Source of the DNA: Laburnicola sp. R22_1
Lineage: Eukaryota > Ascomycota > Dothideomycetes > Pleosporales > Didymosphaeriaceae
DNA length: 64,000 nt
Assembly: GCA_014281115.1 (NCBI GenBank)
Contig: JACONQ010000009.1
Location: 1,302,001 to 1,366,000, forward strand
Direction of reading: 5' to 3'
This document shows, one piece after another, positions 50,990-55,074 of the stretch (within the stretch, counting starts at the first letter, position 1; each line of letters opens with the position of its first letter). The notes below the pieces were generated by a model that worked only from the letters and a program-made list of their open reading frames with translations, did no database searches and had not been told where the DNA came from. The position numbers and the translations under genes are program-made.

Positions 50990-53635
50990 TTCTTTTATAT
51001 ATATGCCTCTAGCTATACTTTACTAATAGTAGAAATTTTTGCTGTATCCATATCCTATAGTTTATCCTAGTATATTATATAATATTAATTTTTAAGAATA
51101 AACTATTCTATACACTTCTTTAGCTCTATCTTATAAATATGTTTGCTAATTATATAGTAGAGATAGGTAGTAGTAGTTAGGTAGGATACTTAATTATTCC
51201 TATTCTTATTATCTTTATTCTACTTCTTTTCTTTATATAAAGTAGGTTCCTTATTATTATACTCTTTTATATCCTAAATATAGGACTAAATAGTTTTATA
51301 TAAAGGTGTTTTATTATTATATTCTTTATAGAAGGTAATATACTATCTTATTATGTAGGTACGTATTACGCAAATAGTTAGAAGACTAATAACCTTTTTA
51401 TAGTATATAAAATACTTCTTTAGTCTTATATAAATATTATTTAATTAGAATTTAAATTGCAATAATAATAGTACAGATTGTCTACAAAATTCTTATTTAT
51501 AAGAGTCTAGTAATCTTCTTCTTTATATAAGAAAGTTGTATTTGCAATTAGTATAGTACGTATTAGTCTTTTATAAGTACTAATTAGATTAGTAATTAAT
51601 TATAATTTAAATTAACACATAGAGATTAGTAAATAGAGCTTTATATGTAGGCTTAGGAATAAATATAGCCTACTCTAGCTCTAGGTATCTATAGCATGCT
51701 TATATAATTGTAGTATAAAGAGGAATTTTCCTAGTAAAGACTATACCTAATACTCTCTATATAAGAGTAAGCCTATTAATTATTACCTCTAGAACTTTAT
51801 ATAGACTTTTATTAGGGTTCTTGCGCTAGTATTATATAAAAGTTATTATAGTCTAGTTTATCTAATACTAGTTATAGTTAATAGTAATATTAAAGTAACT
51901 ATTAAGTGCTTTATATAAGCATTTCTATAATTATCTAGGGCGAATAGTATAAAGGTAATACTATGCCACACGGCTAGTAAGGATATCTAGAAAGATATCT
52001 AGGTATTAATTCTTAGCAATATCTAGGCGTCTATATAGATCTATACAGATTCTAGTCTTATCTACTAAAATATTATATAGAGCTCTAGTATAGTTATTAT
52101 CCTTATTCTATGCCATTTAAAAGTAGATTATCTTATTAGCTAAAATTCTCTAAGGAGGTAGATTGTGCTTAGGCAGAAGCTTATATAGATTAGATTATAG
52201 TATAGACTTAGTTTATATAGATTAGTATAGTGCCTATAATTTATATTTAACTAGTATTGACTCTATTCTATATAGCTTTTAATAATTGCAAATAGGTAGG
52301 CAAAATAGTAGTTAGGTACTATGTGCGAAGAGTAGTAGTTTATTTAGTTATTTATATAAATAAGATTATCCTTACTACTTATATAAAGGTTTTCTTAAAA
52401 TATCTATAGGGACCTATAGCTATATAGGTGCCTATAGTAGCAGTAGCTTACTCTATTTAGGTTTATGCGATAGCCTAACTAGCTTAGATATCTTTAAGAT
52501 TAGCCTTAGTATTTGTGTATAAGGAGTTAAGTAAGCTAGTAAAAGTAGTAATATATAAGTAATATTTATATTATCTTAGGCTATTTTATATAGTTTACTA
52601 GTACTTATAGCTCTAGTATATATTCTTAGTGTAATGCCCTTTTCTCCTAGAACTGCAATAAGCTCTCTTTTAAATATATAGTTTAACTTTAAAAAATAGT
52701 ATTCTTTCTACTCTTTAAAGACTTTCTAGAATAATTCTAAGAAAGCTGTCCCTTTTTAGTATAGTATATAATAATTAGCAATAGTATATACTGCGTATAA
52801 TTATATTTTTAATCAAGAGGGATTATCTACTAGGTTAATTTTATTCTTTTAGTACTTAGGTCTTATTCCCTTGCGTAGTGTTGCCTCTAATATTCCTATT
52901 CCTTTAGTATACTTATTATATAGTCTAGTATATTTAGGCATATTAGTATTATTTTATAAAGTAGAGATAGTAAAGGTAATGACTTTATATAAAGTAGTAG
53001 TAGAGATAGTTATTACATAACTAGTTTGTTTAATAGATTAGTTATATAAAGGGTTGCGCTTTATTAGGGTTTATTATTATCTAACTATATATTTATATAG
53101 TTACTAGTAGTATGCTTAGTGTATTATCTTCTCTTAAATCTTATATAGTAGCGATATTTACTTACTAACTTAATAAAAGAGTCAATCTACTATTCTTATA
53201 AATAAGAATAAGTTTTATATATTTTATATAATCGCTTCCTTTATTTTATATAGTAGTAATAGTTACTTACTAACTCTATAAAGGTTTAATCTGCTATTCT
53301 CTTATATATAGAGAATAGGGTATAATAAAACAAATTATATAGCTAATAATAACTTATATAATCTATCTTTACTCTTACTAATTTATACTTAATAGTTAGT
53401 TAACTACTAATTAGTGTTTAATAGGTACTCTATAGCTAGCTGTATAGATATTAATATCTAATACTCTATACTAGCAAGTGTAAAAAGTGTATAGAATAAT
53501 TATATAAGAAAAGAAAATAATATAATAAAATAACTTAGTATTAATTACTTATTTCTAGAAAGGGTGCAAATAGAAAAATAAGATCCTATAGCGTATAGGC
53601 TACAGCGTATAGGCATTATATAATCCCTATATAAT

Positions 53636-54993
53636 TCTCCTCTGGGGTTAATTCGTGATGTCACGTGATTCCGGGCCGGCTGTTTGACCAACCACTATGT
53701 TACATAGTTAATAATTTCTTTAATAATATTTTATACTATAATAATAATAATAATAATAATAATAATAATAATAATAATAATAATAATAATAATAATAATA
53801 ATAATAATAATAATAATAATAATAATAATAATAATAATTATAATAATTATAATAGTAACTAACCTAACTATTTTATCTAACTCTCTCCCTATAGTAAATC
53901 TCTCCTCGTAACTAGCGAGCTATATACTACTACCTAGGACCTTGCCACTACTACCTATCTCCCCTATGCTCCCGCCGCCGCCGCTTACTCTTACCCTTAT
54001 TACTTAGTTATAGGCCCCTACCTTAATAGCACTCTAGATAATTACTACTATATCTATAAGCTTCTTGCGCTACAGCTACGCTTTTAAACTCCTATAGTCC
54101 CTAAAGAATTGCTACTTATTATCTAGTAGCTACCCTATACCTTTGCTTTACTAGTCCTTATCTTTAAGCTTCTCTAGTAACGTCTTTGCTTTGTCCTATT
54201 ATTATAGTATAAATGCTTAACCTAACTCTCTATCTAGGTACTAAAGAAGTGCTTTGCACTCTAGGATCTAGAGTTATAGAACTAGCTAATAGGGCCTAAA
54301 TAGCTAGAGCTAGGTGTTATTAAAGATATTAAGATTAAGAGGCCCCTTTAATAACCCTACTTACTATATAAGATTACTAAATCTCTAGGAATTATTCTTA
54401 ACTTTGCCTAGCTAATCCTCTATATACTCTTAGAACTTTATTATAGCTATGCTACCCTATATAGAAGAAGTAGTGTAGTTAGGCCACTAGAATATTATCG
54501 CATTACTAGATATAATAGATAAACAGCTAAATTTAAAAGATAGTAGTAGTAGTTATGCGTTAAAAATAAAGATTTAGTATACTAGGTATTACTAATATTA
54601 TAAGAGACAGACTTTATACACTATATATATAGTAAACTATAGTTATACTATAGCTACTAGATTATAAATACAATAACTAAACTATAGTTAAGTGTTTTAT
54701 TGCCCACACTACTTTTGTAGTTACAACTCTATAGTCTACTATAGCTTTCTAATAGTCTACTAGTTAAGAAATAACATATAACTTAGTTATACTAAATAGT
54801 AGACTATTTATTAACTACTATTAATAATACTACTATAAATAAAGTTAATAACAAAATTATTATTATTTTAGATATATTTTATCACTACTACTATATACTA
54901 GGTACTAGATTTTAGTGCCTTCTATTTTACTCCTCTCTATATATAGTGCGGACTCGATCTTGGTTAGAATTTTCACACGACGAAGATGTTTAA
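53636..54993 (+). mobile_element. Element X, near full-length copy 2, 15-bp duplication
   Basis: 1,358 bp. Inserted in the right LTR of relic C: TAATCCCTATATAAT (53621-53635) and TAATCTCTATATAAT (54994-55008) flank it, one C/T difference, while the left LTR (44256-44270) has the site once. Left 100 bp are almost RIP-free (GTGATGTCACGTGATTCCGG, GGCCGGCTGTTTGACC). Includes an (AAT)n run and a GCCGCCGCCGC patch. No recognised protein. Confidence 0.85.
53738..53838. repeat. (AAT)n microsatellite, about 33 units
   Basis: Uninterrupted ATA/AAT trinucleotide run of about 100 bp inside element X. The X copy at 10522 has only a short irregular equivalent (10625-10650), so the run expanded in this copy. 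Confidence 0.95.
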
Positions 54994-55074
54994 TAATCTC
55001 TATATAATGCTATTATACGATAATATTAAAGTCTTAATTCCCTTAGGAGCCCTTACCTATACAGTGTACGGACA

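What the first reader, a model, noticed from the sequence alone, without database searches (positions are those of the whole stretch)
53621..55008. Element X: retroposon-like family with 9-15-bp duplications and one-end truncation
Four copies: about 1.25 kb (10522-11767, 12-bp duplication), 1.36 kb (53636-54993, 15-bp), 182 bp (31620-31801, perfect 14-bp) and 109 bp (50881-50989, 9-bp). The two short copies both keep the same terminus (GAAGATGTTxAA side) and lose the other. Variable duplication length plus one-sided truncation is the signature of target-primed reverse transcription (LINE/SINE), yet X has no recognised reverse transcriptase and no poly(A).
Basis: partly seen in the sequence, partly recalled or inferred. 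Interest (0 to 1): 0.8.

Follow-up and report, generated by a model that had tools for sequence, protein, structure and literature searches.

The report
Fungal jumping element with backward gene
This is a high-copy parasitic DNA element, apparently of a fungus, that seems to spread by copying its RNA back into the genome with borrowed enzymes, and it carries, on the opposite strand, an unknown gene that looks as if it has been kept working.

Summary
X has four copies in the window and many in the 63.9-Mb host genome (first looks: 1,448 candidates for full X, 1,212 for the 3' end, 40 scored each). Full-length X is about 1.17-1.42 kb with fixed ends. Many sampled copies lack part of the 5' end; 38 of 39 examined 3' ends read [G/A]AAGAT[G/C/A]TT[C/T]A. 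In the 27 of 39 with a clear call, duplications are 13-17 bp and the target is T|ATA (T at -1 in 25, ATA in 26). One-sided truncation, internal deletions and a biased nick site fit target-primed reverse transcription by a LINE in trans. No reverse transcriptase was found in X. Its tail is not significantly like the tails of five LINE loci (four families), so the partner is unknown.

New here: X carries an antisense ORF of 174 aa, intact in one un-RIPped copy, with no relative found. It exists in three divergent lineages (42-59% aa identity) between much better conserved ends and shows purifying selection (pN/pS 0.54-0.65, null means 0.85-0.97). Both long window copies carry RIP-damaged versions.

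I file X as a new family of non-autonomous non-LTR retroposon; the antisense gene is the part worth following.

The parts
53636..54992 (+). Full-length X copy, RIP-damaged (GC 0.29, TpA/ApT 1.68), X20-type, with an expanded (TAA)n tract near its 5' end
53620..53635 (+). 5' target-site duplication ATAATCCCTATATAAT (16 bp, 1 mismatch to the 3' copy)
54993..55008 (+). 3' target-site duplication ATAATCTCTATATAAT
54016..54513 (-). RIP-broken remnant of the antisense ORF (X20 type; tblastn 61% over residues 1-166, E 3e-41)
10522..11765 (+). Full-length X copy, RIP-damaged, X40-type (divergent interior)
10509..10521 (+). 5' target-site duplication ATAGTATAAGTAA (13 bp, 1 mismatch)
11768..11780 (+). 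3' target-site duplication ATAGTGTAAGTAA
10786..11289 (-). RIP-broken remnant of the antisense ORF (X40 type; tblastn 57% over 168 residues, E 1e-51)
31620..31801 (-). 5'-truncated X copy (last 182 bp), GC 0.41
31606..31619 (-). Target-site duplication (14 bp, perfect), on the 3' side of the minus-strand copy
31802..31815 (-). Target-site duplication (14 bp, perfect), on the 5' side
50881..50989 (-). 5'-truncated X copy (last 109 bp)
50872..50880 (-). Target-site duplication (9 bp), 3' side
50990..50998 (-). Target-site duplication (9 bp), 5' side

Best explanation
X is a non-autonomous non-LTR retroposon family of a RIP-active genome, probably fungal. Its RNA is read from the TTCTCCCCCGGGGTCAATCC end to the ...GAAGATGTTCA end. 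A LINE endonuclease nicks the bottom strand after TAT (top strand T|ATA). The TAT 3'-OH primes reverse transcription from the 3' end of the X RNA. The copy often stops early (5' truncation) or jumps within the template (internal deletions), and repair leaves a 13-17-bp duplication. Shown: the fixed 3' end, one-sided truncation, variable duplications, the T|ATA target, internal deletions, and no recognised RT in the frames tested. Inferred: the RNA intermediate, the trans-acting LINE, and pairing of the TAT primer with the RNA tail. On the opposite strand X carries a 174-codon gene that has diverged into at least three lineages under purifying selection while the flanking RNA ends stayed much more alike. 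The ORF and the codon-level signal are shown; its function and its expression from a promoter in the X 3' region are inferred.
For: 3' end motif in 38 of 39 ends, followed by ATA in 36 of 39. TSD 13-17 bp with T at -1 in 25 and ATA in 26 of 27 curated. Truncated lengths from 37 bp upward. 3' ends outnumber 5' ends: 1,212 against 195 first-look candidates, 9 against 3 of 10 incidental stretches. Two copies with both ends and an internal deletion (L010, L042), and five more junctions of the same kind (L043-L047). A LINE nested inside one X shows that X is not that LINE's 3' UTR. No RT in six of the eleven frames of 70 aa or more of the un-RIPped copy. Antisense ORF intact in L017:5387-5911, 151 genomic matches (150 of 425 candidates scored), pN/pS below null in 3 of 3 lineage pairs, P 0.0005 or less.
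Against: No partner LINE was found: tails of five LINE loci give scores reached by 140-998 of 1,000 mononucleotide shuffles. The one LINE with a resolved TSD (L029, 14 bp) does not use ATA. 3 of 39 ends had no detectable TSD, two of the dropped ends (L002, L026_1818) have a duplication that does not start with ATA, and one stretch (L017:506-679) keeps the 5' but not the 3' end. For the ORF: the pN/pS test used a protein-guided alignment, and one X-sense frame scores nearly as low (0.58-0.67). In a frame-blind alignment the third-position excess persists but is weaker. The X20 copy has in-frame stops at the rate simulated for chance (5, mean 4.6), which I put down to RIP. No transcript data were available.
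Confidence: 0.82

Rival explanations
1. X is the same kind of retroposon but carries no gene: the antisense open frame is a by-product of GC-rich sequence, and X is purely non-coding like WEIRD.
For: No homologue in about 5.8 billion proteins, PDB, NCBIfam or Pfam above cut-off. The X20 lineage copy has several stops. The L041 copy has a 53-bp insert that breaks the frame. Structure prediction was poor (pLDDT 48).
Against: The antisense frame is the longest open frame in x17 (252 aa stop to stop) and x40 (237 aa). pN/pS is below null in 3 of 3 pairs. x40 has 1 stop where 5.4 are simulated (P 0.024). In frame-blind alignments 9 of 13 gaps inside the ORF are multiples of three, against 9 of 19 outside.
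Confidence: 0.33
2. X is an internally deleted derivative of an autonomous LINE whose 5' and 3' ends it keeps, rather than an independent SINE-like element.
For: 1.17-1.42 kb is long for a SINE. No tRNA, 5S or 7SL head was found. Its short derivatives arise by internal deletion.
Against: In the nine LINE loci whose tails could be read, the LINE does not end in the X tail. The only LINE adjoining X is inserted inside it, with X's own TSD outside. The census is incomplete: tails of L034 and L036 were not identified.
Confidence: 0.25
3. X is a DNA transposon, Helitron or LTR-type element.
For: It is non-autonomous, high-copy and has two defined ends.
Against: Variable 13-17-bp TSDs, no terminal inverted or direct repeats, and one-sided truncation with a constant partner end.
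Confidence: 0.02

Closest known systems
Eg-R1 (Blumeria graminis SINE-like non-LTR retroelement; PMC6022598, passages read)
   Same: High-copy fungal non-autonomous non-LTR element with no genomic poly(A) stretch, probably pol II-transcribed, and a source of a peptide
   Different: About 700 bp (Egr1, from a passage of PMC5063351); its ROPIP1 peptide (74 aa) comes from a polyadenylated Eg-R1 transcript, whereas X has a 174-aa ORF antisense to the strand that is retroposed
WEIRD / MINE and Mg-SINE with MGL (Magnaporthe; PMC2104539, passages read)
   Same: A 1.1-kb RNA moved by a LINE; 10-20-bp duplications; template jumps produce chimeras; Mg-SINE mimics the MGL 3' end
   Different: WEIRD is reported only as part of chimeras with MGL or Mg-SINE and as non-coding; X stands alone with its own 3' end and in high copy number
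AfuSINE2 families and other fungal SINEs such as Foxy and mgsr1 (PMC5063351, passages read)
   Same: Non-autonomous, TSD-flanked, thought to depend on LINEs
   Different: AfuSINE2 are 140-493 bp, tRNA-related with pol III promoters and low copy number; X has no Rfam or tRNA head and carries an ORF
Tad-type LINEs (clade name recalled; here L024 and L029)
   Same: 14-bp TSD in L029; endonuclease-, RT- and RNase H-like frames in the same genome (read by eye)
   Different: Encode RT; tails (AACC)n or (AATC)n; no T|ATA target in L029

Membership tests
Non-autonomous non-LTR (TPRT) retroposon | Constant 3' end with variable 5' truncation | tested here: met
   43 of 46 stretches reach the 3' end, 9 of 10 incidental ones; 1,212 against 195 first-look candidates
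Non-autonomous non-LTR (TPRT) retroposon | Variable-length target-site duplications | tested here: met
   13-17 bp in the 27 curated of 39 ends; 9 bp in window copy 4
Non-autonomous non-LTR (TPRT) retroposon | Endonuclease-type nick-site preference | tested here: met
   T at -1 in 25 and ATA in 26 of 27 curated copies
Non-autonomous non-LTR (TPRT) retroposon | No reverse transcriptase of its own | tested here: met
   Pfam on six of the eleven frames of 70 aa or more of the un-RIPped copy; element too short for a LINE RT ORF
Non-autonomous non-LTR (TPRT) retroposon | 3' tail shared with a LINE in the same genome | tested here: inconclusive
   tails of five LINE loci (four families) show no significant match, but LINE sampling was incomplete
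SINE (strict sense) | 5' head from tRNA, 5S or 7SL RNA with a pol III promoter | tested here: not met
   Rfam on the window and on the un-RIPped copy, ARAGORN on the window
SINE (strict sense) | Short length (140-800 bp in the fungal SINE passages of PMC5063351) | tested here: not met
   full length 1.17-1.42 kb; the internally deleted L010 form is 330 bp
LINE 3' UTR fragment | Contiguous with LINE ORF2 in one insertion | tested here: not met
   the L024 LINE is nested in X; eight other long matches to its 3' part end at its own tail
Protein-coding element | ORF transcribed and translated | not testable with these tools
   no RNA or protein data held
Protein-coding element | Codon-level selection | tested here: met
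   caveats

The most novel reading that the evidence does not exclude
X is a two-strand element. One strand is an RNA parasite copied by a LINE in trans. The other encodes a diversifying but selected protein whose promoter lies in the 3' region that TPRT copies first, so each full-length insertion brings its own promoter, and truncated copies keep the promoter but lose all or the end of the gene. RT template switching keeps the RNA ends uniform while the gene splits into lineages with no known relatives.
Probability: 0.27. Interest if true: 0.75.

Novelty: new variant of a known kind. Interest (0 to 1): 0.5.

Why it matters
SINE-like retroposons are thought to survive by RNA mimicry alone. One that keeps an antisense gene under selection would raise the question of what a non-autonomous parasite gains from a protein (escape from host defence, help for its helper, or benefit to the host). 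X also gives a well-resolved integration site (T|ATA) and a natural contrast in RIP: the two long window copies are heavily damaged, while short copies and a few long ones elsewhere are much less so.

Tried and rejected
Considered and rejected. (1) X as the 3' UTR of the L024 LINE, or as a LINE-X template-switch chimera: L039 shows the X head and a 14-bp X-type TSD (ATACTAGGTACTAA) upstream of the LINE, so the LINE is nested in X. (2) LINE tails L030, L032, L035, L024 and L029 as donors of the X tail: not significant. L031 and L038 share the L030-type tail, and L033 and L037 the L032-type tail; the tails of L034 and L036 were not identified. (3) A 5'-truncated copy of the L030-type LINE, to learn its target site: no shared word of 8 or more between the two 86-bp flank pieces. 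(4) A fixed small RNA as the head of the short forms: head breakpoints range from about 133 to 145, some with microhomology, and I had picked those loci because their head match ended near there. (5) Rfam on L017: only chance-level hits. (6) Homologues of the ORF: none; a sub-threshold Dredd_N hit (21.1 bits, cut-off 27) was not relied on. The L040 piece given to one search was not the right frame and was redone. (7) Structure of the ORF: pLDDT 48, so no fold search was made.

Rows dropped before the counts. One search listed 40 ends; one weak partial match (L009, minus strand, 2784) was left out, leaving 39. Of these 39, 12 were left out of the 27. L004, L017_8647 and L024_5243 had no TSD. 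L002, L006, L011_2534, L026_1818, L027, L028 (a duplicate of L027), window_11765 and window_50881 had imperfect, offset, short or ambiguous TSDs. L024_5145 was resolved only later.

Full report
What is there. The window is C26:1302001-1366000 of an unnamed 63.9-Mb genome. I take it to be a fungus from the RIP-like dinucleotide bias (window TpA/ApT 1.62) and its LINE set; this is an inference. In the genome, the 1,421-bp query gives 85 matching pieces from 40 scored of 1,448 first-look candidates. The 182-bp copy gives 41 matches from 40 scored of 1,212 candidates.

Ends and duplications. I fetched 20 loci of 9.9 kb around hits to the 182-bp copy and used seven loci around full-length hits (L002-L008). 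One search listed 40 3' ends; 39 were analysed (one weak partial match left out). Of the 39, 38 read [G/A]AAGAT[G/C/A]TT[C/T]A, 26 the stricter GAAGAT[G/C]TT[C/T]A, and 36 are followed by ATA. Twenty-seven had a clear duplication: 13 bp x2, 14 x11, 15 x7, 16 x4, 17 x3. The rebuilt target has T at -1 in 25 of 27 and ATA at +1 to +3 in 26 of 27, against a flank composition of 33% A and 33% T. The ATA is shared between element and duplication, so the exact last base of X is ambiguous by up to 3 bases. Choosing ends with clear duplications may favour this pattern somewhat: two of the 12 dropped ends (L002, L026_1818) show duplications that do not start with ATA.

One-sided truncation. Anchoring on 3' ends cannot show asymmetry, so I scanned all loci fetched up to then with five full-length copies. 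Of 46 stretches, 43 reach the 3' end. The exceptions are one cut by a locus edge, one that is the 5' half of a copy split by a nested LINE (its other half is in L024), and one real one (L017:506-679), whose cause I did not resolve. Most loci had been chosen by 3'-end or full-length hits. Among the 10 usable stretches that were incidental, 9 have the 3' end and 3 the 5' end. Genome-wide, 182-bp end queries give 1,212 (3', from the window's short copy) and 195 (5', from L017) first-look candidates; these are candidate counts, not confirmed copies, and the queries differ in composition. Truncated lengths range from 37 bp upward. A cluster at 181-183 bp is partly expected, because the query was 182 bp.

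Internal deletions. L010 (330 bp, 16-bp TSD) and L042 keep both X ends, with different interior joins. Five further junctions (L043-L047, 81-86 bp read) join the X head near positions 133-145 to differing points of the 3' part (seven different points in all, x17 702-1047), some with microhomology; their 3' ends were not read. These loci were chosen because their head match ended there, so the head clustering is partly selection. They fit template jumps by a reverse transcriptase.

No RT and no LINE tail. An un-RIPped full-length copy exists (L017, 3' end at 4947 on the minus strand, 1,232 bp, GC 0.57, 15-bp TSD). Six of its eleven frames of 70 aa or more hit nothing above Pfam cut-offs. The ends show no terminal inverted or direct repeat. 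The genome has 150 scored RT matches, some of LINE size. Tails could be read in nine of eleven LINE loci; five tails from four families were tested, and none resembles the X tail beyond mononucleotide shuffles (L030 140, L035 503, L032 275, L024 998 and L029 880 of 1,000 shuffles reach the score). The LINE next to X in L024 is inserted within X. So LINE-driven mobilisation is inferred from the insertion anatomy, and the partner is unknown.

Antisense gene. On the strand opposite to the retroposed RNA, L017:5387-5911 encodes 174 aa. The translated search finds 151 matches in the genome, 150 of 425 candidates scored; only two listed matches are free of stops, the L017 one and a shorter one (L041), and most others have many TAG stops, as expected from RIP. 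Three lineages, x17, x20 and x40, differ by 41-58% in protein, with 38-88% DNA identity per 75-column block in the ORF interior. The flanking 5' and 3' parts are 79-100% identical per block, apart from the first 70 bases that x40 lacks. Codon tests: pN/pS is 0.55 (17-20), 0.65 (17-40) and 0.54 (20-40), against null means of 0.85, 0.93 and 0.97, with P 0.0005 or less in all three. One X-sense frame also gives 0.58-0.67, which I ascribe to shared wobble positions; every X-sense frame is closed by stops (2-9 per span). Frame-blind alignment keeps the third-position excess (46/42/65, 62/59/78, 59/51/85) and gives 9 of 13 gaps in the ORF as multiples of three against 9 of 19 outside. Stop avoidance is significant for x40 (1 observed, 5.4 simulated, P 0.024) and not for x20 (5 observed, one of them terminal, 4.6 simulated). 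The ORF has no relative in the protein database, PDB, NCBIfam or Pfam above cut-off; the database search needs shared 5-residue words, so distant relatives could be missed. The AlphaFold2 model, from three sequences, is mostly helical but of low confidence. The two long window copies carry RIP-broken x20-type (54016-54513, -) and x40-type (10786-11289, -) versions.

Reading. The synonymous differences in the ORF (pS about 0.46-0.62) far exceed the differences in most flanking blocks. So either the flanks are strongly constrained as RNA, or template switching between lineages keeps them uniform. I favour the second, as an inference. An antisense gene sits with its start near the end that reverse transcription copies first.

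Known relatives. In the library searched I found fungal SINEs, Eg-R1 and the WEIRD/MINE chimeras, and no listing of a fungal LINE-dependent element with a long antisense ORF. I read passages of three papers, none whole. Most papers of subscription journals and Repbase are not held there, so X itself may already have a name.

Noticed in passing
L041:2031-2083 (C23:53530-53582): A near-intact X17-type copy has a unique 53-bp insert that looks like a spliceosomal intron on the X-sense strand (GT...GCTAAC...TGTAG); no other match with up to 3 mismatches in the genome, so it may be a new intron or one lost from the other copies.
   Followed up: partly
L032, L033, L037, downstream of the LINE tail: Three of three copies of this LINE are followed by similar target sequence (for example TTCAATCCTGAGGTTATACT), suggesting a site-specific LINE inserting into a repeated gene or element.
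   Followed up: no
L030/L031 LINE family: 23 of 40 scored copies are 96-100% identical over the whole last 488 bp: recently active and little RIPped in a heavily RIPped genome.
   Followed up: no
X positions ~130-170 (for example L017:6011-6050, minus strand): Full-length copies of all three lineages share a branch-point/3'-splice-site-like stretch (CTAACCC...TTTTGTTACTCTCCCACAG in x17) just after the head breakpoint used by the short forms.
   Followed up: partly
L027 and L028 (C16 and C14): X copies with the same 3' end and flank, and paired hits with equal scores on C14 and C16, suggest a large duplicated segment between these contigs.
   Followed up: no
L017:506-679: A stretch with the X head but no detectable 3' end, followed by sequence that did not match X; the one real exception to one-sided truncation.
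   Followed up: partly
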